Origin: Siphonodentalium dalli
Taxonomy: Eukaryota; Mollusca; Scaphopoda; Gadilida; Siphonodentaliidae
Assembly: GCA_032622095.1 (NCBI GenBank)
Contig: CP136061.1
Span: 40,553,797-40,617,796, forward strand
Direction: 5' to 3'
DNA length: 64,000 nt
Shown one piece after another: positions 7,781 through 63,545 of the stretch. Each line of letters opens with the position of its first letter. The stretch's first letter is position 1. The notes beneath the pieces were generated by a model, which worked only from the letters and a program-made list of their open reading frames with translations, was not told where the DNA came from and searched no databases. The translations under genes were made by a program, and so were the position numbers.

Positions 7781-7795
7781 TCACGATTGTGGCCA

Positions 7796-24660: not shown

Positions 24661-24784
24661 GGATGTAAATTTAGTATTTTTTTTATATTGGCCTTACTCA
24701 CCAACTAATACGAATTCGTAAGGATTACTCCAACATGTTTTCATTTTTATTCCATGGCTACCAGAGAGCTATTGAATTATTCAG

Positions 24785-29111: not shown

Positions 29112-29204
29112 CTCGTGTGAATTCAGAACAATCAAGTTTTGGAAACACTGCAGAAAAGAAAATGACGAGACCTGAACCAGCTCTTATGCATGGGATTAAT
29201 ACAG
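29112..29204 (+). CDS. Exon: linker ending at a minisatellite
   Basis: This 93-bp exon lies between TTGTGTTTTAG and GTATTA, with phase 1 at both ends. With the G of the previous exon it reads ARVNSEQSSFGNTAEKKM, then TRPEPALMHGINT, a hydrophilic disordered linker with no domain. Its last 10 bases, ATTAATACAG, are the first copy of a 24-bp minisatellite (29195-29466), and each unit repeats the same donor-like ACAG-GTATT. If a later donor is used, the protein gains in-frame INTGIIYE units. Alternatively reading runs on to a stop at 29513. Exon limits are inferred from splice words and phase only. Confidence 0.58.
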
Positions 29205-33089: not shown

Positions 33090-33263
33090 GCTGCTACATC
33101 CTGTGAAGCTAAGATAGTCACTTCAGCGGCCAATCAGAATCCTCGAGCTACAGCCTTCTGTAAAGCTAAGATAGGCTCTTCAGTGGCCAGTCAGAAGCAT
33201 CCAATACCTTTAGAGTACCCTTACTGCTGTGATGTGTGCCATTTGATCTACAAAACCAAAGAT
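32464..33263 (+). CDS. Exon: 19-residue repeats and first half of a zinc finger
   Basis: This 800-bp exon follows ATATCCTTCAG, enters in phase 1 (G plus CT gives Ala, in frame with the exon at 29112) and ends in phase 0 at GAT before GTAAGT. It encodes eleven 19-residue repeats (consensus ASTKVRNDSALNSNQLTAR), then two decayed repeats, then YPYCCDVCHLIYKTKD. That tail is the C-x2-C half of a matrin/U1-type zinc finger, and the H-x5-H half lies in the exon at 59099. Such fingers, in ZFR, ZNF346 and similar proteins, bind double-stranded RNA. The repeats look disordered. A minus-strand open frame over the same repeats is a shadow. Confidence 0.68.
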
Positions 33264-33306
33264 GTAAGTCATGTAAACCTTTGGTGCAACATTAAAGATT
33301 CTATGC

Positions 33307-33363
33307 CAGTGCATTCTCTTATATATGCAAGTCTCCCATATGGAGCCTAACATATAAGAGAAG
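33307..33363. repeat. Decayed copy of the piggyBac-MITE hairpin
   Basis: CAGTGCATTCTCTTATATATG and CATATAAGAGAAGTGG match the hairpin module of 14076-14142 with changes. No TTAA-flanked element surrounds it. Confidence 0.65.
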
Positions 33364-33718
33364 TGGAACAGCCAACAGCTATCTTGGATTTTACTCTTTG
33401 TATGACTAAATTCTTCTGCCCACCCAAGAGGCCAACTCCCTCATCCGATAATCGCCAAACTTCATGTGGATCTTCGGTGTGACCTGTAGATAAGAGCCAT
33501 CTCAGATTTTACTCTTTCTAGTCGTATTACTGCATCATTTGGCACTCCCTACAGCCAAACTTTCGCATCTGATTAATCCCAAAATGTTTATGCATCTTCA
33601 GGGTTACCTCTAGTTACATAAGCATATAAACTGTCCGAGTTCCCTATCGCTCTATGGACTGTATTATATAGCATGATTCCATTTCCATGTTGAGCTACAG
33701 CATCATTGACACTTTCAT
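33355..33718 (+). mobile_element. Helentron-like element, 3' part only
   Basis: About one and a half diverged core monomers (AGCTATCTTGGATTTTACTC, TCATCCGATAATCGCCAAAC) are followed by the family's 3' end: GTTGAGCTACAGCATC, ATTGACAC, TTTCAT. The first satellite monomer follows directly at 33719. Confidence 0.6.
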
Positions 33719-33803
33719 ATAATGTACACTGTGGGGGTATCCTTATATTCACTGGGACAGTCCCACCTCCAGTTATATCATGTACACTGTGGGGGTATCC
33801 TTA
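33719..33803 (+). repeat. Satellite, left remnant (split from the main array)
   Basis: About one and a half monomers in the same orientation as the main array (TGTACACTGTGGGGGTATCC, GGGACAGTCCCACCTCCAGTTATATC). They break at TTA where the inverted-repeat transposon starts. The main array resumes with TTAGACCC at 41341. Confidence 0.85.
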
Positions 33804-34799
33804 TAGTGTGGTCGTGGTACGCAAAAAAAAGGGGTTGACCCAGAAGAAATTGGTAAAGAAGCGATCTCGGTGTCATTCAACGCGGGAGAATCTCTGCTAC
33901 AGCATATCCAAAATCTGCTAAAATCCGCTTTGGGGAAGATCCAGGATCCAAGATGGCGTCTAACATCGCCGCCTTTAGTCAAAAGATATTCTGACTGAGA
34001 TTAATTCGACATAATGAGAACAAATTTTGCCATATTTATACAAATGTAAACATTTTTGCGAAGGTAAAGTATTATGCCACATATCTATAGAAAAAATGGA
34101 ACCCCTCGCCCCAGATGGCTGCCAAAATGGCGGCCTAAACTCGAAAATTTGAAGTTTTTGCCTAATATCAATTCCTGTTGTTTGATAATGGTTCGGACTG
34201 GCGACAGTGATTAGTCTTATTCATGTTAATTCAGCATTGGAGCAATGAAAGATACCATAAATGGGGTCCCAGACTCATCTACACCCTCAAAAATTTGATT
34301 TTACAGAATGCGGTATAAAATTCCACAAAAATCGCCATTGGGATTCCAGTCATATATCAACAAGAAATGGACAGAACTGTACAATGTAAGTTGGGCATAC
34401 CATTATCTATAAATACTCCAATTCAATGAAACCCAAATTGGCGCTTTGTCTTAAAATGGCTGCCAAAATGGCAGTCAAAATATGGAAAATGGCGAATATT
34501 TAGAATGGTCGTCAGAGGGTTGGACCCATAAGTAATTGGTAAAGAAGCGGTTTTGTTGTCATTCGACGCGGGAGAATCTCGTGTATAACATATCCAAAAT
34601 CCGCTAAAATCCGCTTTGGGGAAAATACAGAATTCAAGATGGCGTCTAACATGGTCGCCAATAATAATGAAAATGGCAAATATGTAGGTATTCACGAAAA
34701 CCCACTCGACAAAACGCCAATTCGGCATCAATACACATCATTGATTGAAATCAATGTTTTTTGTGGGTATGAGTAGCCAATCATGATTCAAAATTCTAA

Positions 34800-36312
34800 G
34801 ATGGCTACCAAAATGGCCACCGAAAATTGTCGAAATTTAAGTTCTGCTCAGAGGAGAGCCGAAACAACACATCGGTTGTGAGCTAACGATGACAGACCCA
34901 TTAAACATGTTGCCAATAATCTACTACCACAATAAGTTCAGCCCGTAATGTTCCAACTAAGCAGTATCTACTGCAGGATCCAACATGATGTCCACTTATT
35001 ACAAGGGACTATCTGGAAATTAATTAAAAAGAAATTAAATTGCGCACGAATCTGGATTATTTGAAAACATAATAGTCCGGAAGCATCAGGCTATAATGGG
35101 TTTTCCAGTGATGGCGAAAGTGAAAAGGATAGGAGGGAAAAGCGAATAATCTGGGGTTTACTTAATTGGTGGGAAAGTTGGTTATCGGAGCTGGGGAGTT
35201 TCAAAGTAAAATTATTTTCTTCAATATCAAGAGGAAAATGAAAATTCGCACGTACATTGTATACCCTTCACACTCCATGTGACAATTCCGTGTCATGCGA
35301 TTGTGGGTATATACATGTGGATAGAAACATTCTAGTAAATATATAGACGCACCGATATCTACTACACATTTAGTGAATTTCATCAATGATATGTAGACAC
35401 AATGTGTGCCACCGCTGGATCTGACCCATAGGCGTAAATGTATCAAACATTTAGCTTGATGAACTGGTATTTCAAGGTTGTCATTGGATAGAAATGCCAC
35501 ATGAACATGGTGATTAACAACATGTTTGTCTAAGAAATGTGAACAATGAACATGTTATTTTCCGGATGCTAGACAATCAAACTGCCACATAAGGCGTTCA
35601 TTCATGCTCATCAGAGCACGACATATGTGCAAATTAATGACACGAAAACTATTTCATGCGGACGACGTACTCTAGACCTACATGCAACGTCATTTCCTAT
35701 TAACTTTTATTGTTTGTACGGACGGTTTCGAGGTTTGAAAATCACGCTTCTCCAAGAAGACCTCCACATACTTACGGAGTCGATGTGTAAACAATGTATG
35801 GGGATAGTTTCTTCATAAATATATGTATTTGGCACACGTATTTCTAGGACATAAGAGATCACCATTTACCGGAGAGTTGATATCTGGGAAGAGATGAGAG
35901 TAAAACTACTTTTCGTGCATGTCGAAATGGGGAATCCATGGGCTACATTTAGTTCCAGCTTGAAACTTGAAAATGATGGCCGAGCCCGAATAGTTAATAT
36001 TTCGTCGCATCAGTGCTATAATGTAACCCACATTTTCAACTTTCCGAGAAAATGAAGGTTGAAGTTTTTAGACAACTTTTCTCCTAATGTTGACAAAGCA
36101 TGACGTATTGTTGTATTTATCCCAATGAAAACAGACATTAGCTGTTCATTGAACCACATATTGTTTTCTGTTTACTCCCTCGTTTTCTTTTAAAAAGCAA
36201 TAGATTGTTTGGAGATATCACATTTTGCGCACGCCAGCGACGATTCGTTTCCGTGCTATAATGAAGTTGTGCTAATAAATGCAGATTAAGCTAAATATGG
36301 TGGCAATCGCAT
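34800..36312. other. Interior of the inverted-repeat transposon, no gene seen
   Basis: The longest open frames (35201-35500 minus, 35627-35818 plus) have no recognisable motif. It could hold decayed transposase sequence, but I cannot support that. Confidence 0.4.
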
Positions 36313-36998
36313 GTGTCTATTAGGGTTGAAACGATTAATCGACTAGTCGTAGACGACGCTGAAATGTCAGAACGTCGACTCTGAATTTTGCCGTCGACAA
36401 GTCGGAATATAGTGTATTAGTTTCATGTATAACGTTTTCAAGATTAATTCCGGCATAAACGGTGTTAACTGCGCGTAAGTTATGGTAAGTATAATGTTTG
36501 GTGGCACCCGGAATTTACAGTAGTACTAGTATAGACACACACGGACCTGTGACCCCGACTTAATTGAACGAATGGAATTGACAACACAATGTCTCACTCG
36601 TCGTTTGAGGTCAAAGACATGATGGCAATGATTGTAGCAGCTTTGTCGTTTGTCCGAGACCGCTTTTATATAGACACTGTGTATATTTCAATTGATCTTG
36701 CACCGTCAGGTTATGAGGCGATGCTGGGTGAAGGTCGCTTAAGGTGACGTCATTGGTGCTACCGTATATAAATGATACTGACATTAAGAACTGGCTATCG
36801 TATTCTACAACGTAGCCTATACTATAGGGGCGTATTTAGTCGGAACATTAACATTGTATAGTGACACCGCTCGGCAGCGGTTTATTGGTGATCACGTGAC
36901 TAAACGAAATAATCTCGAACGCTGATATTAAATTTAAAACCTATATAAATGATCGTGTTTCTAATAATTATCCACCACATGTCTAATTATATAATTAC

Positions 36999-39374
36999 TA
37001 GAAGGTGACCCGACTTCGTCCGGGCTTTGACCTTGAATTGTCCATTTTGAAGGTCAAGGTCAAGTGGGGTCACGATTTGACCAGTCCAAAAACACTGCCC
37101 GGACAATAGTACCCGACAAACGTGCCCGTCGAAATCCATCCGGTTTTACCCGATTTGACCTTGAATTGATCATTTTGAAGGTCAATGTCAGGTCGGGGTC
37201 ACGATTTAACCCGTCCAAAACACTCAGTGGACAAAAGTAACCCTATGTATAAAATTTCGTCGAAATCCCCTCAAAATTGGCGATTTGACCTTGAATTGAC
37301 CCGATTTCAAGGTCAAGGTCACGTCGCACGGGCAAATGAATATGCTTATGAGACTCCCGATACGAAAATACCCCCACATACCAAGTTTCATCGAAATCCC
37401 GTGATATTCGGGCGTTTGACCTTGACATGACCCGATTTCAAGGTCACGTCGCACGGGCAAATTAATAGGTTTTTGCCACTCCCCGGCCGAAGGTATCCCC
37501 ACATACCAAGTTTCATCGAAATCCCGTGATATTCGGGCGTTTGACCTTGAAATTACCCAAGGTCACGTCGCACGGGCAAATTAATAGGCCTATGTCACTC
37601 CCCGGCCGAAAATACCCCCACATACCAAGTTTCATCGAAATCGGCTAGGCCGTTTTCGAGTCCATCGATTACAGACAGACAGACACACACAGATCTTTCA
37701 AAATATATAATAGACTAGAAGGTGACCCGACTTCGTCCGGGCTATTCAAAAACCAAATTTCAAGTCGATTGCTCCACCCGTTTCCGAGATCTGGTCTGCG
37801 CATGCGGGAAGCTGGCGTCGCACGGGCTCGGCGACCCGATAAAATTCGTATCCGGGGCAAGATACATTTACATACCAAATTTCAAGTCGATAGCTCCACC
37901 CGTTTCCGAGATATATAGCCCGATGTCATTTGCGGATACCTCGGCCGGTGATGAGTTAACGCGACATCGGCCGGATAAGAGTTAACGCGATCACGTCACG
38001 ATATGTTGATGGCGTAATATATTTACGCAATGATTTTCGATGAGCGAAGCATGGTCCTGCGTTCTTCCCGATAATTAAGGTAGAAACTTTAAACGTACAC
38101 AGGCGTGTGATGCATCATTGGAAAGATGAAGCGCCACAGATTCTAACCGTGCAAATTATATGACTGGCAATTTATTATTCGCGCTATATCGAATCGATTT
38201 GTGAGCACCGAACTGAAATATATTAGCGCAAAACGGCGTAAAAACAGATTTGACCTCGGCACGTGAAAAGTTGACCTCGGATCTGAAAATCAATAGGCCT
38301 ATGTTACTCCTGACCCGAAAATACCAGTCCTTCGAATTTGGAAAACGTAGGTGCGCGATATATCGCTCGGAGCTTTTGGAATTTGCGCGCGCCTTTTTTG
38401 AGGGAGCACAATTCAAATTAACATGGATGAAATGATTACTGAATAAAGACAAACACAAGTATAATGATACACACGTATAATTCCAAGTGTGCCTGTGCGC
38501 AACATAAAGTGAAAAACAGAAATAAAAACATATGTTTAGATTGTAGTACAATATCTAGTCCACAATATTAAATCCGATTATCCGGCAATCTAGGTGAATC
38601 TAATCACGGTAATGAGTCCACTTCCGCGTCTGAGAGCGCATGCTCATCAGACTCACAGTCGCTTAAAACTTCAAACTCGGAAGTGGAATGGTTACCGCAA
38701 TCCGATTCACCGGAATCCGACGAATCAACCGGGGCTCTCTTTCGTTTTGATAGAGTCGGTATTTCGGAGGCTCCAATGTCCATTTTTCGCTTTCTCCGAG
38801 TCGAGAGATACTGGCTTCGAAGTATAGCTTCGAAGTATAGTTAAACTTAAACCCTAATCTATGGCAATAGTATTCAAATGAATCGGCGAATCCCGCATGC
38901 TGAAACATCAAACGAGGCCGCCAAAGAATTGACACAGTTTTTTGCGGGAACTCGCACGTGCAGCAGTTGTGATGAGGTGTCATCCCAATCATTGAGTGAG
39001 AAAGACGCCGGCGGCCGCTTTGATCTTTGTTATCATGTTCGTAATCAACGTCATCGCTGCTGAGAAAGATACACGGTGAATAGTCTTGTCGGCGTTTAAC
39101 TATTGATGTGCTGTTTGTTAAAATCTCGTTCACTGGCTGCAAATTCCGACGCGCGCATTTAAAATTTTCGGCGTGCGCATTTAATAACTCGCTGGTTTTT
39201 AGATCCGCGTGCGCCAAGGCGCGCAAGCGCAATTGCGCGCCTCAAAATCGAAGGACTGAAATACCCCCACATACCAAGTTTCATCGAAATCGGCTGGGCC
39301 ATTTTCGAGTCCATCGATTACACACAGACAGATACACACACACACACACAGATCTTTCAAAATATATAATAGAT
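36999..39374. mobile_element. TAGAAGGTGACCCG element pair nested in hAT B
   Basis: Two related units in tandem each begin (C)TAGAAGGTGACCCGACTTC and end CAGATCTTTCAAAATATATA plus ATAGA; the first runs 36999-37712, the second 37713-39374. Inside are repeated ~120-bp blocks with TTTCATCGAAATC, GACCTTGA and AAGGTCACGTCGCACGGGC. The tail TTTTCGAGTCCATCGATTAC with CAGACAGACA resembles 3' ends of some non-LTR or Penelope-type elements, but I cannot place the class. The insertion point in hAT B is AATTAC/ATTCAG. Confidence 0.65.
38326..39257. mobile_element. AGTCCTTCG-ended element, innermost insertion
   Basis: The ends AGTCCTTCGAATTT and AAAATCGAAGGACT bound 932 bp. The flanks AAAATACC (38318-38325) and GAAATACC (39258-39265) match in seven of eight bases. 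The host repeat is seen uninterrupted at 37606 (GAAAATACCCCCACATACC). A minus-strand open frame of 189 codons (39232-38663) and an overlapping plus-strand frame rich in S, D and E run through it. Neither has a motif that I know. Confidence 0.7.
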
Positions 39375-39630
39375 ATTCAGTGTGTTGGATAAATATCAAG
39401 ATGTTTACAGTATTATTTCCCAAATAAATTGGTGTGTATGCAGGGAAATGCGCAACGCAATAGACCGTCATTGCATCAGTCATCAGTGTACGCCATGTAC
39501 GATGAATTTTCCGTACAATGTTATGTTTGAAAGTTTTGATATCGGGTACCGACTAGTCGACGCAACGCAACTTTTGGGCCTCGACTAGTCGACTCTGAAA
39601 TTCACTAATCGTTTCAACACTAGTGTCTAT

Positions 39631-40499
39631 GAACTAAAAAGTGCGTATTTTACACTATGAAAATTCACCCATGTGCATCATCATACAGAAATGTGTGGAA
39701 CAGTCACAAAATTTAAATCACCAAATGATCACGTGACTAACATGGAGATACTACCATATAGCACACATTTTAGAATTCACAAACACAAAACAGAAGTCAC
39801 GTGGACAACCTGAAGCGTCCGATTGGCTGCTGTTGGACATACGACCTCATAGCACAAATAATTATAAAGATCGCTGGAGATACGACATTTGCTTCACTGG
39901 TTTGTGCGAATATTTGTCATCCAATACAAAAACAGTTTGGCCCATCGGATTGGATTTTTTCTCACGATTCGAATTGTATCAAATACTCATTTCCCGCCAT
40001 AATGGAGTTACGACATTATAGCACTGATGTGTCGAGATTTTGTCAACCCGTGGGAAGCCACCAAAAGATTGAAAATAAATAGTTTTGATGTATATGAGCC
40101 ACATACATGTATATTAGCCAACTATCAACTGCATCCACCACTCACAACTTCCATTATATGATAAGCTGGGCAGAGTCTACCATTTTCGTTTTGGAAGCCA
40201 TATTAGATAAAATTTATTGTTTCTTTTGTTCTATTTGATATGGAATGTTCACAAATAAAAGAAACGCTCAATTATTTTGGAGACAAGATCTGCTCATCCC
40301 TAAATATCAAATGTGACCAGAACCCCAAAGTCGATTTTGGTTAAATTTCATACCGCATTTGTTATAACTTATTAGTGAAGGACCGGAGTAAACTATGATC
40401 TAATCGATTAGACATGTCATTGCTGGAATGATCAGTTGACACGATCATTAAAAGAATATACCCATTGTTTCCCAGTTCAGAGAGCAATAAGTGATAAAC
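39631..40499. other. Interior of the inverted-repeat transposon, right side
   Basis: No recognisable protein. The open frame at 39801-40082 has cysteines and aromatics but no known pattern. Confidence 0.4.
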
Positions 40500-41340
40500 A
40501 GAAGTGATAGAAAATAGTATTTCTCACATCAGGTGGCCATTTTGGCAGCCATTTTTGGTACTGATTTTTAAGTTTTTACATAGAGCTAGCATAATGGCAT
40601 CATAAAGAGGTATACATTCGTATTTATTTAGTCAATTTTATTCATCAACCACTACTTGTAATGGATTGAATGACACTGTGATCAATATCCGCCATTTTCC
40701 ATATTTTGACCGCCATTTTGAGACAAAGCGCCAATTATGGTTTCATTGAATTGGAGTATTCATAGATATTGGTATGCCCAACTTACATTGTACCGTTCTG
40801 TCCATTTCTTGTTGATATATGACTGTAATCCCAATGGCGATTTTTGTGGAATTTTATACCGCGGTCTGTAAAATCGAATTTTTGAGGGTGTAGATGAGTC
40901 TGGGACCCCATTTATGGTATCTTTCATTGCTCCAATGCTGAATTAACATGAATAAGACTAATCAAAGTCGCCAGTCTGAACCATTATCAAACAACAGGAA
41001 TTGATCTTTAAGATATTAGGCAAAAACTTCAAATGTTCGAGTTTAGGCCGCCATTTTGGCGGCCATCTGGGACGAGGGGTTCCATATTACCTTTGCAATA
41101 ATGTATACATTTGTATACATATGACAACATTTGTTCTCACTATAATCGAATTAATCTCAGTCAGAGTATCTTTTGACTAACGGCAGCCATGTTGGACGCC
41201 ATCTTGGATCCTAAATTTTCCCCAAAGCGGATTTTAGCGGATTTTGGATATGTTATACACGAGATTCTCCCGATTCGAATGACACCAAAACTGCTTCTTT
41301 ACCAATTTCTTCTGGGTCTAACCCTCCGACGACCACACTA

Positions 41341-44300
41341 TTAGACCCTCTGGGACAGTCTCACCTCTAGTTATATCATGTACACTGTGGGGGTATCCTT
41401 AAATCCGCTGGGACAGTCTCACCTCTAGTTATATCATGTGCACTGTGGGGGGTATCCTTAGACCCTCTGGGACAGTCTCACCTCTAGTTATATCATGTGC
41501 ACTGGGGGGGGGGGGTATCCTTAAATCCGCTGGAACAGTCTCACCTCTAGTTATATCATGTGCACTGGGGGGGGTATCCTTAAATCCGCTGGAACAGTCT
41601 CACCTCTAGTTATATCATGTACACTGTGGGGGTATCCTTAGACCCTCTGGGACAGTCTCACCTCTAGTTATATCATGTACACTGTGGGGGGTATCCTTAA
41701 ATCCGGCTGGAACAGTCTCACCTCTAGTTATATCATGTGCACTGGGGGGGTATCCTTAAATCCGGCTGGAACAGTCTCACCTCTAGTTATATCATGTACA
41801 CTGTGGGGGGTATCCTTAGACCCTCTGGGACAGTCTCACCTCTAGTTATATCATGTGCACTGGGGGGGGGGGGTATCCTTAAATCCGCTGGAACAGTCTC
41901 ACCTCTAGTTATATCATGTACACTGTGGGGGGTATCCTTAGACCCTCTGGGACAGTCTCACCTCTAGTTATATCATGTACACTGTGTGGGGTATCCTTAA
42001 ATCCGGCTGGAACAGTCTCACCTCTAGTTATATCATGTACACTGTGGGGGGTATCCTTAGACCCTCTGGGACAGTCTCACCTCTAGTTATATCATGTACA
42101 CTGTGGGGGTATCCTTAGACCCTCTGGGACAGTCTCACCTCTAGTTATATCATGTGCACTGGGGGGGGGGGGGGGTATCATTAAATCCGGCTGGAACAGT
42201 CTCACCTCTAGTTATATCATGTGCACTGGGGGGGGGGGATCCTTAAATCCGGCTGGAACAGTCTCACCTCTAGTTATATCATGTACACTGTGGGGGGTAA
42301 CCTTAGACCCTCTGGGACAGTCTCACCTCTAGTTATATCATGTACACTGGGGGGGGGGTATCCTTAGACCCTCTGGGACAGTCTCACCTCTAGTTATATC
42401 ATGTGCACTGGGGGGGGGGGTATCCTTAAATCCGGCTGGAACAGTCTCACCTCTAGTTATATCATGTACACTGTGGGGGGTAACCTTAGACCCTCTGGGA
42501 CAGTCTCACCTCTAGTTATATCATGTACACTGGTGGGGGGGGGGGTATCCTTAGACCCTCTGGGACAGTCTCACCTCTAGTTATATCATGTGCACTGGGG
42601 GGTATCCTTAAATCCGGCTGGAACAGTCTCACCTCTAGTTATATCATGTGCACTGGGGGGTATCCTTAAATTCGGCTGGAACAGTCTCTCCTCTAGTTAT
42701 ATCATGTACACTGTGGGGGGTATCCTTAGACCCTCTGGGACAGTCTCACCTCTAGTTATATCATGTGCACTGGGGGGTAACCTTAGACCCTCTGGAACAG
42801 TCTCACCTCTAGTTATATCATGTACACTGTGGGGGGTATCCTTAGACCCTCTGGGACAGTCTCACCTCTAGTTATATCATGTGCACTGGGGGGTAACCTT
42901 AGACCCTCTGGACAGTCTCACCTCTAGTTATATCATGTGCACTGGGGGGGGGGTATCATTAAATCCGCTGGAACAGTCTCATCTCTAGTTATATCATGTA
43001 CACTGTGGGGGTATCCTTAGACCCTCTGGGACAGTCTCACCTCTAGTTATATAATGTGCACTGGGGGGGGATCCTTAAATCCGGCTGGAACAGTCTCACC
43101 TCTAGTTATATCATGTGCACTGGGGGGGGGGGGGGGTATCCTTAAATTCGGCTGGAACAGTCTCACCTCTAGTTATATCATGTACACTGTGGGGGGGTAA
43201 CCTTAGACCCTCTGGGACAGTCTCACCTCTAGTTATATCATGTACACTGTGGGGGGTATCCTTAGACCCTCTGGGACAGTCTCACCTCTAGTTATATCAT
43301 GTACACTGTGGGGGGTAACCTTAGACCCTCTGGGACAGTCTCACCTCTAGTTATATCATGTGCACTGGGGGGGGGTATCCTTAGACCCTCTGGGACAGTC
43401 TCACCTCTAGTTATATCATGTGTACTGTGGGGGTAACCTTAGACCCTCTGGGACAGTCTCACCTCTAGTTATATCATGTACACTGGGGGGGTATCCTTAG
43501 ACCCTCTGGGACAGTCTCACCTCTAGTTATATCATGTACACTGTGGGGGGTAACCTTAGACCCTCTGGGACAGTCTCACCTCTAGTTATATCATGTACAC
43601 TGTGGGGGGTATCCTTAAATCCGGCTGGAACAGTCTCACCTCTAGTTATATCATGTGCACTGGGGGGGTATCCTTAAATTCGGCTGGAACAGTCTCACCT
43701 CTAGTTATATCATGTACACTGTGGGGGGTAACCTTAGACCCTCTGCGACAGTCTCACCTCTAGTTATATCATGTACACTGTGGGGGTAACCTTAGACCCT
43801 CTGGGACAGTCTCACCTCTAGTTATATCATGTACACTGGGGGGGGGGGTATCCTTAGACCCTCTGGGACAGTCTCACCTCTAGTTATATCATGTACACTG
43901 GGGGGGGTATCCTTAGACCCTCTGGGACAGTCTCACCTCTAGTTATATCATGTGCACTGGGGGGGGGGGGGTAACGTTAGACCCTCTGGGACAGTCTCAC
44001 CTCTAGTTATATCATGTACACTGTGGGGGTAACCTTAGACCCTCTGTGACAGTCTCACCTCTAGTTATATCATGTACACTGGGGGGGGGGGGGGTATCCT
44101 TAGACCCTCTTGGACAGTCTCACCTCTAGTTATATCATGTGCACTGGGGGGGGGGGGGTAACCTTAGACCCTCTGGGACAGTCTCACCTCTAGTTATATC
44201 ATGTACACTGTGGGGGGTATCCTTAGACCCTCTGGGACAGTCTCACCTCTAGTTATATCATGTACACTGGGGGGGGGGGGGGGTATCCTTAGACCCTCTG

Positions 44301-50300: not shown

Positions 50301-53300
50301 GGGCGTAACCTTAGACCCTCTGGAACAGTCTCACCTCTAGTTATATCATGTGCACTGGGGGGGTAACCTTAGACCCTCTGGGACAGTCTCACCTCTAGTT
50401 ATATCATGTACACTGTGGGGGGTATCCTTAAATCCGGCTGGAACAGTCTCACCTCTAGTTATATCATGTGCACTGGTGGGGGTATCCTTAAATCCGGCTG
50501 GAACAGTCTCACCTCTAGTTATATCATGTACACTGTGGGGGGTATCCTTAGACCCTCTGGGACAGTCTCACCTCTAGTTATATCATGTGCACTGGGGGGG
50601 GGGGGTATCCTTAAATCCGGCTGGAACAGTCTCACCTCTAGTTATATCATGTACACTGTGGGGGGGTATCCTTAGACCCTCTGGGACAGTCTCACCTCTA
50701 GTTATATCATGTGCACTGGGGGGGGGGGGGTATCCTTAAATCCGGCTGGAACAGTCTCACCTCTAGTTATATTATGTACACTGTGGGGGGTATCCTTAGA
50801 CCCTCTGGGACAGTCTCACCTCTAGTTATATCATGTACACTGTGGGAGGTATCCTTAAATCCGCTGGAACAGCCTCACCTCTAGTTATATCATGTACACT
50901 GTGGGGGGTAACCTTAGACCCTCTGGGACAGTCTCACCTCTAGTTATATCATGTGCACTGGGGGGGTATCCTTAAATCCGCTGGAACAGTCTCACCTCTA
51001 GTTATATCATGTACACTGGGGGGGGGGGGGGGTATCCTTAGACCCTCTGGGACAGTCTCACCTCTAGTTATATCATGTACACTGTGGGGGGTATCCTTAA
51101 ATCCGCTGGAACAGTCTCACCTCTAGTTATATCATGTACACTGTGGGGGGTAACCTTAGACCCTCTGGGACAGTCTCACCTCTAGTTATATCATGTGCAC
51201 TGGGGGGGGGGGGGGGTATCCTTAAATCCGCTGGAACAGTCTCACCTCTAGTTATATCATGTACACTGTGGGGGGTAACCTTAGACCCTCTGGGACAGTC
51301 TCACCTCTAGTTATATCATGCACACTGTGGGGGGTAACCTTAGACCCTCTGGGACAGTCTCACCTCTAGTTATATCATGTGCACTGGGGGGGGGGGTATC
51401 CTTAGACCCTCTGGGACAGTCTCACCTCTAGTTATATCATGTGCACTGGGGGGGTAACCTTAGACCCTCTCGGACAGTCTCACCTCTAGTTATATCATGT
51501 GCACTGGGGGGGGGGGGGGGTATCCTTAAATCCGCTGGAACAGTCTCACCTCTAGTTATATCATGTGCACTGGGGGGGGGGGGTATCCTTAAATCCGGCT
51601 GGAACAGTCTCACCTCTAGTTATATCATGTACACTGTGGGGTATCCTTAGACCCTCTGGGACAGTCTCACCTCTAGTTATATCATGTGCACTGGGGGGGG
51701 GGTATCCTTAAATCCGCTGGAACAGTCTCACCTCTAGTTATATCATGTACACTGGGGGGGGGGGTATCCTTAGACCCTCTGGGACAGTCTCACCTCTAGT
51801 TATATCATGTACACTGTGGGGGTATCCTTAAATCCGCTGGAACAGTCTCACCTCTAGTTATATCATGTACACTGTGGGGGGTAACCTTAGACCCTCTGGG
51901 ACAGTCTCACCTCTAGTTATATCATGTGCACTGGGGGGGGGGGTATCCTTAAATCCGCTGGAACAGTCTCACCTCTAGTTATATCATGTACACTGTGCGG
52001 GGTAACCTTAGACCCTCTGGGACAGTCTCACCTCTAGTTATATCATGTACACTGTGGTGGGTAACCTTAGACCCTCTGGAACAGTCTCACCTCTAGTTAT
52101 ATCATGTACACTGTGGGGGTATCCTTAGACCCTCTGGGACAGTCTCACCTCTAGTTATATCATGTACACTGTGGGGGGTATCCTTAGACCCTCTGGGACA
52201 GTCTCACCTCTAATTATATCATGTACACTGGGGGTATCCTTAAATTCGGCTGGAACAGTCTCACCTCTAGTTATATCATGTACACTGTGGGGGGTAACCT
52301 TAGACCCTCTGGGACAGTCTCATTTCTAGTTATATCATGTGCACTGGGGGTATCCTTAAATTCGGCTGGAACAGTCTCACCTCTAGTTATATCATGTACA
52401 CTGTGGGGGTATCCTTAGACCCTCTGGGACAGTCTCACCTCTAGTTATATCATGTACACTGTGGGGGGTAACCTTAGACTCTCTGGGACAGTCTCACCTC
52501 TAGTTATATCATGTGCACTGGGGGGGGGGGGGGTAACCTTAGACCCTCTGGAACAGTCTCACCTCTAGTTATATCATGTACACTGTGGGGGTATCCTTAG
52601 ACCCTCTGGAACAGTCTCACCTCTAGTTATATCATGTGCACTGGGGGGGGGGGGTATCCTTAAATCCGCTGGAACAGTCTCACCTCTAGTTATATCATGT
52701 ACACTGTTGGGGTATCCTTAGACCCTCTGGAACAGTCTCACCTCTAGTTATATCATGTGCACTGGGGGGGGGGGTATCCTTAAATCCGCTGGAACAGTCT
52801 CACCTCTAGTTATATCATGTACACTGTGGGGGTATCCTTAGACCCTCTGGAACAGTCTCACCTCTAGTTATATCATGTGCACTGGGTGGGTATCCTTAAA
52901 TCCGCTGGAACAGTCTCACCTCTAGTTATATCATGTACACTGTGGGGGGTAACCTTAGACCCTCTGGAACAGTCTCACCTCTAGTTATATCATGTGCACT
53001 GGGGGGGGGGGTATCCTTAGACCCTCTGGGACAGTCTCACCTCTAGTTATATCATGTACACTGGGGGTATCCTTAAATTCGGCTGGAACAGTCTCACCTC
53101 TAGTTATATCATGTACACTGTGGGGGGTATCCTTAGACCCTCTGGGACAGTCTCACCTCTAGTTATATCATGTACACTGTGGGGGGTAACCTTAGACCCT
53201 CTGGGACAGTCTCACCTCTAGTTATATCATGTGCACTGGGGGGGGGGGGGGTATCCTTAAATCCGCTGGAACAGTCTCACCTCTAGTTATATCATGTACA

Positions 53301-56300
53301 CTGGGGTGGGGGTATCCTTAGACCCTCTGGGACAGTCTCACCTCTAGTTATATCATGTACACTGTGGGGTGGGGGGTATCCTTAAATCCGCTGGAACAGT
53401 CTCACCTCTAGTTATATCATGTACACTGTGGGGGGTAACCTTAGACCCTCTGGGACAGTCTCACCTCTAGTTATATCATGTACACTGTGGGGGGTAACCT
53501 TAGACCCTCTGGGACAGTCTCACCTCTAGTTATATCATGTACACTGGGGGGGGGGGGTATCCTTAGACCCTCTGGGACAGTCTCACCTCTAGTTATATCA
53601 TGTACACTGTGGGGGGTATCCTTAGACCCTCTGGGACAGTCTCACCTCTAGTTATATCATGTACACTGGGGGGGTGGTATCCTTAGACCCTCTGGGACAG
53701 TCTCACCTCTAGTTATATCATGTGCACTGGGGGGGTATCCTTAGACCCTCTGGGACAGTCTCACCTCTAGTTATATCATGTGCACTGGGGGGGGGGTATC
53801 CTTAGACCCTCTGGGACAGTCTCACCTCTAGTTATATCATGTACACTGTGGGGGGTATCCTTAAATCCGCTGGAACAGTCTCACCTCTAGTTATATCATG
53901 TACACTGTGGGGGTATCCTTAGACCCTCTGGGACAGTCTCACCTCTAGTTATATCATGTGCACTGGGGGGGGGGGTATCCTTAAATCCGCTGGAACAGTC
54001 TCACCTCTAGTTATATCATGTGCACTGGGGGGTATCCTTAAATCCGGCTGGAACAGTCTCACCTCTAGTTATATCATGTACACTGTGGGGGGTAACCTTA
54101 GACCCTCTGGGACAGTCTCACCTCTAGTTATATCATGTACACTGTGGGGGTATCCTTAAATCCTCTGGAACAGTCTCACCTCTAGTTATATCATGTACAC
54201 TGTGGGGGTATCCTTAGACCCTCTGGAACAGTCTCACCTCTAGTTATATCATGTGCACTGGGGGGGGCGTAACCTTAGACCCTCTGGAACAGTCTCACCT
54301 CTAGTTATATCATGTGCACTGGGGGGGTAACCTTAGACCCTCTGGGACAGTCTCACCTCTAGTTATATCATGTACACTGTGGGGGGTATCCTTAAATCCG
54401 GCTGGAACAGTCTCACCTCTAGTTATATCATGTGCACTGGTGGGGGTATCCTTAAATCCGGCTGGAACAGTCTCACCTCTAGTTATATCATGTACACTGT
54501 GGGGGGTATCCTTAGACCCTCTGGGACAGTCTCACCTCTAGTTATATCATGTGCACTGGGGGGGGGGGGGGGGTATCCTTAAATCCGGCTGGAACAGTCT
54601 CACCTCTAGTTATATCATGTACACTGTGGGGGGGTATCCTTAGACCCTCTGGGACAGTCTCACCTCTAGTTATATCATGTGCACTGGGGGGGGGGGTATC
54701 CTTAAATCCGGCTGGAACAGTCTCACCTCTAGTTATATTATGTACACTGTGGGGGGTATCCTTAGACCCTCTGGGACAGTCTCACCTCTAGTTATATCAT
54801 GTACACTGTGGGAGGTATCCTTAAATCCGCTGGAACAGCCTCACCTCTAGTTATATCATGTACACTGTGGGGGGGTATCCTTAGACCCTCTGGGACAGTC
54901 TCACCTCTAGTTATATCATGTACACTGTGGGGGGTATCCTTAGACCATCTGGGACAGTCTCACCTCTAGTTATATCATGTACACTGTGGGGGGGGGTATC
55001 CTTTGACCCTCTGGGACAGTCTCACCTCTAGTTATATCATGTACACTGTGGGGGGTATCCTTAGACCCTCTGTGACAGTCTCACCTCTAGTTATATCATG
55101 TACACTGTGGGGGGTAACCTTAGACCCTCTGGGACAGTCTCACCTCTAGTTATATCATGTACACTGGGGGGGGGGGGGTATCCTTAGACCCTCTGGGACA
55201 GTCTCACCTCTAGTTATATCATGTACACTGGGGGGGTATCCTTAGACCCTCTGGGACAGTCTCACCTCTAGTTATATCATGTGCACTGGGGGGGGGGGTA
55301 TCCTTAGACCCTCTGGGACAGTCTCACCTCTAGTTATATCATGTGCACTGGGGGGGTATCCTTAAATCCGCTGGAACAGTCTCACCTCTAGTTATATCAT
55401 GTACACTGTGGGGGGTATCCTTAGACCCTCTGGGACAGTCTCACCTCTAGTTATATCATGTGCACTGGGGGGGGGGTATCCTTAAATCCGCTGGAACAGT
55501 CTCACCTCTAGTTATATCATGTGCACTGGGGGGGGGTATCCTTAAATCCGGCTGGAACAGTCTCACCTCTAGTTATATCATGTACACTGTGGGGGGTAAC
55601 CTTAGACCCTCTGGGACAGTCTCACCTCTAGTTATATCATGTACACTGTGGGGGTATCCTTAAATCCGCTGGAACAGTCTCACCTCTAGTTATATCATGT
55701 ACACTGTGGGGGGTATCCTTAGACCCTCTGGGACAGTCTCACCTCTAGTTATATCATGTGCACTGGGGGGGGTAACCTTAGACCCTCTGGGACAGTCTCA
55801 CCTCTAGTTATATCATGTGCACTGGGGTGGTAACCTTAGACCCTCTGGGACAGTCTCACCTCTAGTTATATCATGTACACTGTGGGGGGTAACCTTAGAC
55901 CCTCTGGGACAGTCTCACCTCTAGTTATATCATGTGCACTGGGGGGGTATCCTTAAATCCGGCTGGAACAGTCTCACCTCTAGTTATATCATGTACACTG
56001 TGGGGGGTAACCTTAGACCCTCTGGGACAGTCTCACCTCTAGTTATATCATGTACACTGTGGGGGTATCCTTAAATTCGGCTGGGACATTCTCACCTCTA
56101 GTTATATCATGTACACTGTGGGGGTATCCTTAGACCCTCTGGGACAGTCTCACCTCTAGTTATATCATGTACACTGGGGGGGGGGGGGGTATCCTTAAAT
56201 CCACTGGAACAGTCTCACCCCCTCTAGTTATATCATGTGTACTGTGGGGGGGGGGGGGGGGGTATCCTTAAATCCACTGGTACAGTCTCACCTCTAGTTA

Positions 56301-56328
56301 TATCATGTGCACTGGGGGGTATCCTTAG
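41341..56328 (+). repeat. Main satellite array, ~59-bp monomer with a poly-G run
   Basis: About 15 kb (roughly 250 monomers) of head-to-tail repeats. Two main types alternate irregularly: type A with TTAGACCCTCTGGGACAG and type B with TTAAATCC(G)GCTGGAACAG. Both continue with TCTCACCTCTAGTTATATC, ATGT(A/G)CACTG and a G run of about 4 to 17 residues, then GTATCC or GTAACC. All G runs lie on the + strand. Monomer length varies mainly through the G run. Large internal duplications exist (see findings). The open frames across it (ISCTLWGVSL, GTVSPLV) are satellite translations, not genes. Confidence 0.97.
46915..54845 (+). repeat. ~3.97-kb tandem duplication inside the satellite
   Basis: Rare monomer variants recur at a constant offset of about 3,965 bp: CATGCACACTG at 47349 and 51318, CTCTCGGACAG near 47505 and 51472, CTCTAATTATATC near 48243 and 52208, TCATTTCTAG near 48355 and 52320, TATATTATG near 50768 and 54735, CAGCCTCACC near 50870 and 54837. 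The two copies are thus about 46915-50880 and 50880-54845. They differ mostly in G-run length. Confidence 0.85.
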
Positions 56329-58461
56329 TAGTCTGGGAATAAATTTGGACTAAGTTGTTTTTTATTCTGTTTTGAAGAGGAATATATCCTCTACAACATA
56401 TCCAAAATCCACTTTGCGCAAACTTTTTTACAGATATTTTTAAAATGCCCATTTTTCGACCATGTCAAGTAGGTTTTTCTACAATATCCCTCATCGGCGA
56501 CACCAGAACGCATTAATCCTCCATCCGATATATACCAGTTTGTGTGAAATTAGAGTATAGGGGGCGAATAGAGTGACAAGGACAGAAAATAATGCAATCG
56601 CGGCGATGAAATGGCTGTCAAAATGGCCACAACTCCAATCCATGCTACTACGAAAGCAACAGATTGGATAACCACCTATATTTGAAAATACACATTGGTA
56701 ATTTACAGGTATGTTGTCATATATATCTTTAAAGATACACATATAATTAAAACAGATTTGTCTGAATGATTTATCGATCACTGCAACGCACGTTAACCCA
56801 ATGATTTACGTTCGGGTTCTCTGCTTAGAATGCACACAACAGTCGGGCCAAAAACAGTTATTTCAGGCATGCAACACACGAAGTAATATTTCGTCACGCA
56901 GTGCGTGGTAGTTTCATTTGGAATGATGATTAATTATTGAATGTAACGCAGAAACTGAAGTGCACACCCTTGCTGTGTAAATACTAGTTACATTTCCGGA
57001 ATTTTCAACACTCTCCGTGATAATAAACCATACACGTATGTTGTAATGCTGATTATACTGTAAAGAAACACTCATCTCTTCAACAGGATAGTACCCTATC
57101 TCACTAGATCGAAGAGTACATTTTATTTAATACTAAATTTCATGCTGTTTCCAAACCGGTTTCTTAGACAATTTTGTTCAAATTACTTCAATCGGCACTT
57201 TACAACGGGAATATGTACCACGCAATGCACACTATTAGTTTTCAGTATCTTGTTTGAAATTATATTACCATTGTCACCCACAAACTTGCGTTAAATATCA
57301 GGTCATCAGCGTTTAAAGTTATTAGTTCTGCATTTACCATTCACTCAATGTTGATATTTATGGGTTTGTATGCAGCAGATATGTCTAACATTAGGGAGAA
57401 TGGGTAAATGGCGGCAATGCGGTTGCAGAAAAGGTAGTACATTTCAGTATATGTGGCCTTAGTGCATTTAAGCACATATAATTTCCAGGTATAAAGACAG
57501 TCTCTGACACAGAGTATGTAAGCAAATTAGGTTATGTTGAGAATTTATTGAAGATAGTCTATTGTACTTCTTTGTATTTTGATAAATTGCGTTCATGGTA
57601 TACCACCATGCATTTGTGTGATAAAAGCGAAATATTTGTGTTTAATCACTTGACCAGCGGCAAGTATGACTACTATTTTAAGACACGGACAATAGGATCT
57701 ACACATTTTACCTAGTACCATATGAATAGCCCTCACACTGTTCTATAGTAGTGAATTTTGACAGATTTGGTGTTGTAGATATAAAAATAAATTATTATCG
57801 GTCACATTCGTTTTCGTTACATACATTTCTGCTTCTAGAAAAGGTCACTTAATCAATTCATCCCTATTAGATCCTATTTAACTATTTAATTACACATATA
57901 TTACACGATTCAAGATAAACAGTACAGATAAAACTGCGTTATTCTTCTGTTTCTTGGCGCCCAAAAAGTCCACATTTAATCGTTGTATGAGACCTGGCTT
58001 TCGTTTGCTCTCTTGCAAGATACATTAGAGAGAATTCTTACACTATTATTAAAGCTCCCCTTATACTCTGAAATCATTCTTCCTCGTATAATTCGATGGG
58101 CTTGTTCGTTCTTGTATGACTAGCTATTCAATTTTCCACAAATTGTAAATTTCATTCGCTTTTGTTCATTTTGGCAGCCATATTGGGACAGACATTCTAC
58201 CGATATGGTTCACGACTAAGCATTATTTGTGTGCATTTTATTTTATCACTAATTTGGTATTAGTTGGCGCACCTACCACCGAAATTCAGAATTTTTCTAT
58301 ACCATCTGTCATCATGGACGCCATCTTGGATTACAGAAATGCTCAAAGCGGATTTTTGATATGTTATAGAGGATATATTCTTCTTCAAAATGGAATAGAA
58401 TCCAACTTAGTCCAAATTTATTCTAGGTTGACCCTAAAATGTTAGTTTATCGACCAGTCTA
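56329..58461. mobile_element. Long inverted-repeat transposon in the satellite, copy 2
   Basis: The ends TAGTCTGGGAATAAATTTGG and CAGTCTA close inverted arms (about 56329-56640 and 58130-58461) that share GGACTAAGTTG, GAGGAATATATCCTCTA, and CATATCCAAAATCC with their complements. The satellite is duplicated by 3 bp, TAG, at 56326-56328 and 58462-58464. Arm words are shared with copy 1 (CGCCATCTTGGAT, TATCCAAAATC). The 1.5 kb centre has no gene that I recognise. Confidence 0.82.
56641..58129. other. Interior of inverted-repeat transposon copy 2
   Basis: AT-rich, with only short open frames. No domain, exon border or RNA gene is seen. Confidence 0.45.
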
Positions 58462-58527
58462 TAGACCCACAGACCCACCTTTAGTTATATCATGTGCACT
58501 GCGGGGGGGGGGGGGGGGGGGGGGGGG
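58462..58527 (+). repeat. Satellite, right remnant (split from the main array)
   Basis: One monomer, TAGACCCACAGACCC, ACCTTTAGTTATATCATGTG, CACTGC and a G run of about 26 residues. It continues the array on the far side of inverted-repeat copy 2. Confidence 0.85.
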
Positions 58528-58990
58528 TTCCTGATGATAACTGAATTGTTGGGTTATTGGATTGAAACCAAATTTGGTATGTGAGTTTATGAGCTTAATA
58601 CAGGTGAATTTCGAATATAGGTTCGGTCCGCCCATTTTGGCTGGAGTTATGGCACCTTTTTTACTTCGGATTTTTCATTTTGAGGTTTCTGGATGATAAC
58701 TTTAGTTTTGTAATCTGATTGTTTTTAAATTTGAATGTGGATTAACCACATGAAGATACAGGTCGAGTTCAAATTTGGGTTTGGTATGCCCATTTTTGAC
58801 GTTGTTATGGTCCTTGTTGACTTAAATTTGCCAATTATTTTGGTTTCCAGATGATAACTTTTAAGTTATCTTTTAAGTTATCTGATTGTTTTTAAATTCA
58901 ACTGAATCTCTTGATATTTGGTACGTGGTTCAATTTTCAGAAGACAAAGACGGAATTTGGTCTCAGTCACGGTGCAATGAATTTTGACAG
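58528..58990 (+). repeat. GATGATAACTTTA-type tandem-core repeat
   Basis: Three diverged units with GATGATAACT, AACCAAATTTGGTATG or its variants, CAGGT(C/G)(A/G)A(A/G)TTC and GAGTTATGG. It is related to 24025-24660. Unit heads follow directly on the satellite's last G run. Confidence 0.6.
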
Positions 58991-59098
58991 AGTTTGAATA
59001 AACCTATCCTTACTAAAAAGCAACCGTTTCAGGTGACATATGGTCGGTGACCTTTTATTGTATCTGTGTTGTCTGAATCAAATTACTTTATTTTACAG

Positions 59099-59272
59099 AG
59101 TCTCAACACACATCTCGAAGATGGTAAACACGCAAGAAGGATGGCTGCATTGAAACGCATCAAACATGCAGGCAAAGTAAATCCCAAAGCACGGATCTGT
59201 GAACTTTGTAATGTCGTTTGTAGCAATATAGATAATTTCAATAACCACATCCATGGACAAAAGCATGAGAAG
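59099..59272 (+). CDS. Exon: matrin/ZFR-type zinc fingers
   Basis: A 174-bp exon between TATTTTACAG and GTAACC, phase 0 at both ends (58 codons). It opens with SLNTHLEDGKHARRMAALKR, whose two histidines complete the finger begun by CDVCHLIYKTKD in the exon at 32464-33263, giving C-x2-C-x12-H-x5-H. A 14-residue basic linker follows, then a full second finger, CELCNVVCSNIDNFNNHIHG then QKH. Tandem fingers with this spacing and an AALK after the first are typical of ZFR and related double-stranded-RNA-binding proteins. The transcript must continue to the right, but no later exon in phase was found in the window. Confidence 0.8.
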
Positions 59273-63539: not shown

Positions 63540-63545
63540 GAGACA

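What the first reader, a model, noticed from the sequence alone, without database searches (positions are those of the whole stretch)
33231..59172. One zinc finger cut in two by a 25.8-kb satellite-filled intron
The exon ending at 33263 stops after CDVCHLIYKTKD. The exon starting at 59099 opens with SLNTHLEDGKH. Joined at phase 0 they give C-x2-C-x12-H-x5-H, the exact spacing of a matrin/U1-type finger, and both borders are proper GT-AG sites. The intron between them holds the whole G-rich satellite. A host gene therefore has to be transcribed and spliced through a megasatellite-like block. Spacing and phase are read from the sequence. That the splice occurs is inference.
Basis: partly seen in the sequence, partly recalled or inferred. 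Interest (0 to 1): 0.78.

Follow-up and report, generated by a model that had tools for sequence, protein, structure and literature searches.

The report
Zinc-finger intron swollen by transposon satellite
One zinc finger of this gene really is encoded in two pieces 25.8 kb apart; the split itself is old and shared with related genes, but here the gap became large mainly because the tail end of a jumping gene was copied about 250 times inside it.

Summary
Exon 8 (32464-33263) and exon 9 (59099-59272) join at phase 0 through GT-AG into C-x2-C-x12-H-x5-H. An intronless copy of the gene on C6 is a natural cDNA: it crosses 33263|59099 without a gap. A tandem paralogue has the same split and homologous intron ends, so an assembly misjoin is very unlikely. 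Three divergent homologues (two near-identical) have a compatible split with 2-3 kb introns, so the split is an old family trait.
What is special is the growth: a 15-kb satellite (249 units), a 7.5-kb TIR element and a 2.1-kb element. The paralogue's intron is 10.2 kb with about 8-9 units. The monomer is the 3' terminal module of a dispersed HINE/pearl-like element plus a 16-bp linker; 1,145 exact copies of a 32-base piece of that end exist. Described Helitron-derived satellites use mostly central repeats or 5' ends.
Limits: the retrocopy probably predates the duplication, so it proves the ancestral splice, not splicing through 249 units today. dN/dS between paralogues is 1.06 (0.65-1.79). No RNA. 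The array is not G-rich.

The parts
1540..1679 (+). exon 1 (5' UTR; start approximate)
   Evidence: aligned to the C6 retrocopy, donor GTATAACC; the exon 1/2 junction is the weakest
12058..12135 (+). exon 2, start codon at 12109
   Evidence: GT-AG borders, retrocopy collinear
17438..17582 (+). exon 3, first half of RTEL1-type HHD
   Evidence: PF23116 E 2.9e-12 on residues 11-85 of the joined protein
19781..19891 (+). exon 4, second half of HHD
21892..21940 (+). exon 5
24765..24814 (+). exon 6
   Evidence: paralogue C1:40697079-40697128
29112..29204 (+). exon 7
   Evidence: paralogue C1:40699967-40700059
32464..33263 (+). exon 8: 57-bp coding tandem repeats, then first half of zinc finger 1 (CDVCHLIYKTKD)
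   Evidence: paralogue C1:40712248-40712591
33264..59098 (+). intron 8, 25,835 nt, GTAAGT...TTTTACAG
33719..33803 (+). left edge of satellite (about 1.4 units) directly after a dispersed repeat that ends near 33718
   Evidence: 38 of 46 listed matches to 33600-33800 end between query bases 115 and 126 (40 of 1,370 candidates scored)
33804..41340 (.). 7.5-kb element with long terminal inverted repeats, inserted in a satellite unit with TTA on both sides
   Evidence: inverted arms; dispersed family, 3,742 first-look candidates, 40 scored; junctions read
41341..56328 (+). 59-bp satellite, 249 units
56337..58423 (.). about 2.1-kb element with 84-nt inverted arms, inside the same satellite
58471..58527 (+). 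right-hand remnant of the satellite, ending in a run of 25 G
59099..59272 (+). exon 9: second half of finger 1 (SLNTHLEDGKH) and the whole of finger 2
   Evidence: paralogue C1:40722774-40722947; exon 10 lies beyond the window at C1:40621722-40622259

Best explanation
A spliced gene (at least ten exons; RTEL1-type HHD plus two C2H2/zf-met fingers) has an old phase-0 intron inside its first finger. The parts that the two tandem copies share are about 1 kb of intron flank and a short run of satellite units. In this copy the intron is 25.8 kb because (a) the 3' terminal module of a HINE/pearl-like rolling-circle element, with a 16-bp linker, is present as about 249 tandem units, grown partly by duplication of blocks of about 66 units, and (b) two TIR elements inserted into the array. 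The splice sites and frame were kept, so the finger can be rebuilt at the RNA level. Shown: exon structure, ancestral splicing, homologous paralogue intron, conserved split, identity of monomer and transposon end. Inferred: local tandem amplification as the mechanism, expansion here rather than contraction in the paralogue, and present-day splicing across the block.
For: Retrocopy: collinear exons, exact 33263|59099 junction; 7 of 9 junction probes align ungapped across the junction, and 8/9 scores 63 versus 33/30. Paralogue: same exon borders, open frame, C-x2-C-x12-H-x5-H kept, intron 10,182 nt with 6.6 + 2 units. Intron ends homologous at 92% and 91%. Conserved split: L003 (39% identical) joins CDVCKISCAGPQ|TYKEHLEGQKH over 2,067 nt with GTAAGT; L037 and L038 join CGPCRVLFDEEK|VFNVHNESGMH over 2,989 and 2,968 nt. 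Monomer: dispersed elements end in GGGGGTATCCTTAGTCCCATTGGGACAGTCWCACCTCTAGTT with unrelated flanks (5 of 5). A 32-base piece has 1,145 exact matches and 0 in the reversed control. In 16 sampled places, 12 carry at least 60% of the element body, 15 have a single terminal module, and the base after TT is T in 13. At L013 the element body runs straight into an array of its own 3' module with a different linker. Block structure: identity at lag 66 is 0.914; the next best of lags 1-199 is 0.886.
Against: No RNA data. dN/dS 1.06 (bootstrap 0.65-1.79; 311 codons) gives no sign of purifying selection. P(no stop) under 84 neutral substitutions is 0.07, so the open frame is weak support. The retrocopy is older than the duplication if rates are similar, has no poly(A) tail or target duplication that I could recognise, and stops inside exon 10. 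One homologue (L004) has no intron in the finger. The upstream halves in L037/L038 are short: such a pattern turns up 0.22-0.24 times by chance in that much sequence (0.09 for L003). Seven other arrays, two of them in the paralogue, have a linker like the window's, so the unit may have arrived already tandem rather than been born in this intron. A recognisable 5' end was found in 7 of 16 sampled elements. The transposon end and the monomer do not fold better than shuffles.
Confidence: 0.8

Rival explanations
1. The window copy is a dying duplicate: the exons are still readable, but the gene is no longer transcribed or spliced through the array, and only the paralogue (or neither) is active.
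For: dN/dS about 1; satellite units, 57-bp coding repeats and the two TIR elements are more numerous in this copy's exon 8 and intron 8; no transcript evidence.
Against: Open frame over the modelled coding exons 2-10 and all modelled splice borders canonical; the seven gaps in the coding DNA alignment with the paralogue (3, 3, 99, 57, 3, 27, 9 nt; 57-bp repeat number left out) are all multiples of three; exons 1-5 of the paralogue were not found, so the window copy is the more complete one.
Confidence: 0.3
2. Transcripts of this copy usually end or splice elsewhere within the intron (truncated protein lacking both fingers).
For: 12 AATAAA/ATTAAA words in the 7.5-kb element (11.4 expected) and 5 in the 2.1-kb element (3.9 expected).
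Against: These numbers are near chance. The array has 0 GTRAGT (7.9 expected), 0 pyrimidine-tract acceptors (5.7) and 2 polyadenylation words (4.4) against composition shuffles, although a repeat of one monomer samples few words.
Confidence: 0.15
3. The two exons belong to different genes or loci brought together by assembly error.
For: Long arrays are a common place for misjoins; array length cannot be verified here.
Against: Retrocopy and paralogue both have the same exon order, and both intron ends are homologous to the paralogue's. No N in the window.
Confidence: 0.02
4. The array is an ordinary minisatellite unrelated to any transposon; similarity to the element end is coincidence or the element captured a piece of satellite.
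For: Helitrons and HINEs can capture tandem repeats (PMC7492417 and PMC12628747, passages); seven of eight other arrays looked at share a similar linker.
Against: The shared 42 bp (3 differences) is exactly the element's 3' terminal module, present in more than a thousand dispersed places and single-copy in 15 of 16 sampled. L013 and the paralogue show element body followed by multiplied module.
Confidence: 0.1

Closest known systems
HINE / pearl elements and their satellites in oyster (Cg_HINE; PMC7492417, passages read)
   Same: Left module with microsatellite, about 170-bp central repeats, right module with 3' subterminal repeat and palindrome, T-rich insertion sites, satellite-like arrays linked to the element.
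   Different: There the satellite is the central repeat. Here the tandem unit is the right (3') terminal module itself, single in 15 of 16 sampled elements.
Rolling-circle amplified Helitron arrays (Xiong et al. 2016, known only as described in PMC12628747, passages read)
   Same: Tandem arrays made from parts of rolling-circle elements.
   Different: Many of those arrays have multiple 5' ends and a single 3' end, explained by loss of the terminator. Here the terminator module is what repeats.
Satellite-containing gigantic introns of Drosophila Y genes kl-3/kl-5 (PMC6508621, search listing and start of abstract)
   Same: A coding gene with satellite DNA inside an intron.
   Different: Megabase-sized introns with expression data there; 25.8 kb here, and no expression data.
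Intronic VNTRs such as TERT VNTR6-1 (PMC11722454, search listing and start of abstract)
   Same: Tandem repeats of a short unit (38 bp) in an intron, variable number, with splicing in the title.
   Different: About 24 to 66 units there; 249 units of transposon-terminal origin here, variation untested.
RTEL1
   Same: HHD_RTEL1 domain (PF23116, 47.2 bits, cut-off 27).
   Different: No helicase in the gene model; two C2H2/zf-met fingers and repeat-rich regions instead.
ZFR (zinc finger RNA-binding protein); resemblance recalled, not tested
   Same: The C3 homologue (L003) reads like the finger pair of ZFR as I remember it, and the window fingers are 39% identical to L003.
   Different: No DZF domain was looked for or seen. 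A search of solved-structure sequences gave only weak general zinc-finger matches (best E 0.00076).

Membership tests
C2H2 / zf-met (matrin, U1-like) finger | C-x2-C-x12-H-x5-H spacing after joining the exons | tested here: met
   kept in the paralogue and in joined L003, L037, L038
C2H2 / zf-met (matrin, U1-like) finger | Pfam profile above curated cut-off | tested here: met
   zf-met PF12874 27.0 bits versus 21.2, two stretches, best on finger 2
U1-type finger proper | match to the zf-U1 profile | tested here: not met
   not among hits up to E=10; HMMER filters drop most weak matches
C2H2 / zf-met (matrin, U1-like) finger | zinc and nucleic-acid binding | not testable with these tools
   needs protein
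RTEL1 | HHD domain | tested here: met
   PF23116 47.2 bits versus 27
RTEL1 | helicase in the same protein | tested here: not met
   in this gene model the ATG lies just before the HHD, exon 1 has stops in all three frames, and the retrocopy brings no helicase exon; other first exons are not excluded
ZFR | DZF domain in the same protein | not tested
   no search made
HINE (non-autonomous Helentron, pearl-like) | 3' subterminal repeat plus palindrome close to the 3' end | tested here: met
   GGGGGTAT about 42 bp from the end, GTCCCATTGGGAC 16 bp from the end, in 5 of 5 copies; the end does not fold better than shuffles
HINE (non-autonomous Helentron, pearl-like) | 5' subterminal inverted repeat of 11-15 bp with inner inverted repeat | tested here: inconclusive
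   ATACCCCC...GGGGGTAT seen at the 5' end of L016, L017 and (as GTACCCCC...) the paralogue's element and in 7 of 16 sampled, but only 8 bp are shared with the 3' side
HINE (non-autonomous Helentron, pearl-like) | microsatellite and central tandem repeats | tested here: met
   GTCC-rich stretch and about 170-bp repeats; pearl central repeats are about 160 bp (PMC7492417)
HINE (non-autonomous Helentron, pearl-like) | insertion in TT / T-rich sites | tested here: met
   CTAGTT end in all five copies read; next base T in 13 of 16 sampled places (the search pattern itself ended in TT); empty sites not examined
HINE (non-autonomous Helentron, pearl-like) | autonomous Rep/Helicase partner with the same ends | not tested
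   no search made
gigantic satellite intron | megabase-size intron | tested here: not met
   25,835 nt
gigantic satellite intron | satellite array inside a spliced coding intron | tested here: met
   (splice shown for the ancestor)

The most novel reading that the evidence does not exclude
The satellite is built from the stop signal of a rolling-circle transposon: each of about 249 units carries the element's 3' terminal module. This happened more than once (arrays with the window-type linker, and L013 with other linkers), which is the opposite of the published model in which arrays form because the 3' terminator is lost. In this intron such an array lengthened a gap inside a single zinc finger by 15 kb without breaking the finger, and its length is likely to differ between individuals and to change how long the gene takes to transcribe.
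Probability: 0.5. Interest if true: 0.6.

Novelty: new variant of a known kind. Interest (0 to 1): 0.45.

Why it matters
It gives stages of intron growth that can be compared: divergent homologues with 2-3 kb introns at the same point, a cDNA fossil of the ancestor, a paralogue with about 8-9 units, and this intron with about 249. It points to a transposon 3' terminal module, rather than a central repeat, as a satellite monomer. That makes two questions testable: how terminators of rolling-circle elements become tandem, and whether an intron inside one protein domain can grow by more than 20 kb at no cost to splicing.

Tried and rejected
A further exon right after exon 9 (59460, VHSCGASLEYCDIC) was considered and rejected. 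The retrocopy continues instead with VMKYYNTLGIPTP, found 8.7 kb further on at C1:40621722, and the candidate runs into a palindromic repeat.

Exons 6'-10' downstream being further exons of the same transcript after exon 10 was considered. Exon 10 ends in phase 1 at its putative donor while exon 6' needs phase 2, so direct splicing in frame does not work in this model. Alternative use of 6'-10' after exon 5 is not excluded.

Naming the organism failed; 'animal' would be an inference from the RTEL1-type HHD and the pearl-like elements. A mollusc hemocyanin profile found nothing, with no control ringing. A genome search for PF23116 also found nothing, not even this gene (the domain is split between short exons) and no control rang, so that absence means nothing.

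ORFs of the 7.5-kb and 2.1-kb elements matched no Pfam family (5 of 15 and 1 of 10 listed ORFs tried). Purifying selection was looked for over exons 6-10 and not found (dN/dS 1.06). The lack of strong splice sites in the array was not taken as selection, since one monomer contains few different hexamers. Neither the transposon end nor the monomer folds better than shuffled sequence. The ZFR resemblance of L003 is recalled and was not confirmed by the solved-structure search or by the paper search (listing only).

I also withdrew a 'more than 20-fold' growth figure, because the ancestral intron length is not known.
Full report
WHAT WAS CLAIMED. Two exons 25.8 kb apart were said to make one zinc finger, with a satellite in the intron between them.

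THE SEQUENCE. Exon 8 ends ...AAAGAT at 33263 with GTAAGT behind it. TTTTACAG precedes AGTCTC at 59099. Both borders are phase 0, and the joined peptide CDVCHLIYKTKDSLNTHLEDGKH has C-x2-C-x12-H-x5-H spacing. Exon 9 runs to 59272 (AAG|GTAACC), not 59172. The intron is 25,835 nt. Pfam gives zf-met (27.0 bits, cut-off 21.2, two stretches) and C2H2 models below their cut-offs; zf-U1 does not appear up to E=10.

A NATURAL cDNA. Searching the window's own genome (G000, 2.23 Gb, 9 contigs, unnamed) with the joined peptide gave 11 matches up to E=1, among them a place on C6 where both halves lie side by side. The C6 stretch (L001) is an intronless, degenerate copy of the gene. It matches window stretches 1540-1681, 12102-12137, 17427-17578, 19779-19891, 21893-21941, 24764-24808, 29120-29204, 32461-33263 (in pieces) and 59099-59274 in order. 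The alignment leaves the window at 33263 and re-enters at 59099 on consecutive bases. With these as guide I placed ten exons, each intron border GT and AG; exon 10 lies past the window at C1:40621722-40622259. Joined, they give an open frame of 662 residues to the putative donor of exon 10: an RTEL1-type HHD domain (PF23116, E 2.9e-12, residues 11-85), 19-residue repeats, two fingers, and a Thr/Ser/Ala-rich repeat region. As a check I scored 60-base junction probes against the C6 copy. Of 9 junctions, 7 align without a gap across the joint. The two that do not are 6/7, where the copy lacks 16 bases, and 7/8, where my probe used an inner repeat unit (probably the reason). Junction 8/9 scores 63, against 33 for reading on through the donor and 30 through the acceptor; junction 1/2 is the weakest (63 versus 59 for donor read-through). 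The copy has frameshifts, stops matching inside exon 10 next to other repeats, and shows no poly(A) tail or target duplication that I could recognise. 'Processed copy' is therefore read from the missing introns, not from those marks.

THE PARALOGUE. About 110-126 kb downstream on C1 lies a second set of exons 6-10 with the same borders and an open frame. Exons 1-5 of it were not found in the search with the retrocopy's 5' part. Its finger is split at the same place and keeps the C and H spacing. Its intron is 10,182 nt. The first 468 nt after the donor are 92% identical to the window's and 536 nt before the acceptor are 91% identical. So both ends of the window intron are in their right places, and an assembly join between unrelated loci is very unlikely. 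Array length itself cannot be checked here, though the window holds no N.

THE SPLIT IS OLD. Four more matches were looked at. L003 (C3, 39% identical) has CDVCKISCAGPQ followed by GTAAGT and, 2,067 nt on, TTCTTCCCAG followed by TYKEHLEGQKH: the same cut, same phase, same spacing. L037 and L038 (C1, 37% identical, nearly the same as each other) have CGPCRVLFDEEK|GTTTGT and ATCAAG|VFNVHNESGMH, 2,989 and 2,968 nt apart. The upstream pattern is expected 0.09, 0.22 and 0.24 times by chance in these stretches, so L003, with its strong donor, is the firm case. L004 (C7) reads through the finger without an intron. L003 reads like the finger pair of ZFR as I recall it; this was not tested. So the cut finger is a family trait, and only the size and filling of the intron are peculiar to this gene.

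WHAT THE INTRON IS MADE OF. From left to right: a flank with a dispersed repeat that ends near 33718 (38 of 46 listed matches stop between query bases 115 and 126); about 1.4 satellite units; a 7.5-kb element with long inverted ends (33804-41340), which belongs to a dispersed family (3,742 first-look candidates, 40 scored) and sits between two TTA; 249 satellite units (41341-56328); a second element of about 2.1 kb with inverted ends (56337-58423); a last satellite remnant; and the right flank. In the paralogue the same intron place holds 6.6 units, then one dispersed element with 169-bp repeats, then 2 units; I did not analyse the rest of its 10.2 kb. So most of the extra length in the window copy is array plus two insertions. 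Whether the array grew here or shrank in the paralogue is not decided; growth is the simpler reading.

WHAT THE SATELLITE IS. Five dispersed places that matched only part of the unit (L016-L020) turned out to share one element. It has a 5' end TATACCCCCGCAACGAAGTTAGGGGG or close to it (seen in L016 and L017 and in the paralogue's element), a GTCC-rich stretch, about 170-bp tandem repeats, and a 3' end GGGGGTATCCTTAGTCCCATTGGGACAGTCWCACCTCTAGTT, after which the five flanks differ. This is the plan of HINE elements: a left module with microsatellite, central repeats, and a right module with a 3' subterminal repeat and palindrome, in T-rich sites; pearl elements have about 160-bp central repeats (PMC7492417 and PMC4067079, passages read). 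The subterminal repeat here is only 8 bp, shorter than published. A 32-base piece of the 3' end has 1,145 exact matches in the genome and none for the reversed control. Of 16 places picked down the printed list (all on C1), 12 carry at least 60% of the element body and 4 carry 16-45%; 15 have one 3' module and 1 has two; a 5' end was recognised in 7; the flanks are unrelated and the next base is T in 13. The window unit is this 3' module (3 differences in 42 bases) plus a 16-bp linker. At L013 (C4) the body of the element runs straight into a row of its own 3' modules with other linkers. Of the eight other arrays looked at, seven (the two paralogue stretches, L010, L011, L012, L014, L015) have a linker like the window's and one (L013) does not. 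So multiplication of the 3' module has occurred at least twice, and the window's version also occurs at other loci. I did not determine whether it was born in this intron or arrived as a short row.

HOW THE ARRAY GREW. 248 units split cleanly, 90.2% identical to the consensus on average, 125 distinct. Identity between units 66 apart is 0.914, the highest of lags 1 to 199; the next is 0.886 at lag 32. That points to duplication of blocks of about 4 kb on top of unit-by-unit growth (inference). Many Helitron arrays described in plants have multiple 5' ends and one 3' end, explained by loss of the terminator (Xiong et al., as described in PMC12628747), and HINE satellites are central repeats (PMC7492417). 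The same review also says that satellites can come from various element parts and mentions oyster loci where element parts are tandem. A monomer made of the 3' module is thus unusual but not outside what the field expects. I did not find it described in the search listings or the passages read; I made no exhaustive search.

DOES THE GENE STILL WORK? Unknown. Over 311 codons of exons 6-10 (57-bp repeats left out), dN/dS between the paralogues is 1.06 (bootstrap 0.65-1.79), which is no sign of purifying selection. The frames are nevertheless open, and the seven gaps in the coding DNA alignment are multiples of three. A neutral simulation with 84 substitutions keeps the frame open in 7% of runs, which is weak support. 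The retrocopy is about equally far from both paralogues (0.154, 0.159) and farther than they are from each other (0.087, exons 6-9), so it was made before the duplication if rates are similar. It therefore shows that the ancestor spliced exon 8 to exon 9; it does not show splicing through 249 units today. In the array there are 0 GTRAGT (7.9 expected from base-composition shuffles), 0 pyrimidine-tract acceptors (5.7) and 2 AATAAA/ATTAAA (4.4). This would make it an easy stretch to cross, but one monomer repeated samples few words, so I do not read it as selection.

COMPARISON. Satellite-bearing introns of megabase size are known in Drosophila Y genes (PMC6508621, listing and start of abstract), and intronic VNTRs in people (PMC11722454, listing and start of abstract). 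This case is far smaller than the former. It is a new variant of a known kind: its special points are the fossil cDNA and short-array paralogue that bracket the growth, and the transposon 3' module as monomer.

VERDICT. Observation confirmed with small corrections; interpretation partly supported; interest moderate.

Noticed in passing
window 29190-29466: A 24-bp tandem repeat starts at the very end of exon 7 and repeats the exon end plus splice donor (ACAGGTATTAT; 7 exact copies); the frame stays open in steps of 7-8 residues. The paralogue has about 4 units of 21 bp at the same place. Tandem donors could give variable protein length; the retrocopy shows none of the extra units.
   Followed up: partly
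window 32462-33092: Coding 57-bp (19-residue) repeat in exon 8: 11 units here, 4 in the paralogue, 1 in the retrocopy.
   Followed up: partly
window 30334-32321 and 23382-23830: A 66-68-bp intronic satellite, shared with the paralogue (21.6 units, L005:1635-3106), so four different tandem arrays lie within one gene.
   Followed up: no
window 62452-63620 (-): Three open pieces that look like a retroelement; one has an integrase core match (rve, E 2.5e-8), one a sub-threshold Agenet match, one none.
   Followed up: no
window 59492-59603 and 7794-8049, 16430-16865, 19933-20318, 22017-22213, 25071-25199: Dispersed palindromic repeat (GCAGAATGAGGTCCCC...), several copies in the introns of this gene.
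   Followed up: no
L013 (C4:240465200-240468500), 1020-1947: HINE-like element whose 3' module is itself tandem (49-bp units, then 58-bp units with another linker); the right flank resembles the second linker.
   Followed up: partly
C1:40697079-40737009: Tandem paralogue with exons 6-10 but no exons 1-5 found: either a partial duplicate or alternative 3' exons of one gene.
   Followed up: partly
L037 and L038 (C1:22882200-22888200 and C1:26657600-26663600): Two nearly identical further members of the finger family 3.8 Mb apart, each with the finger split by an intron of about 3 kb.
   Followed up: partly
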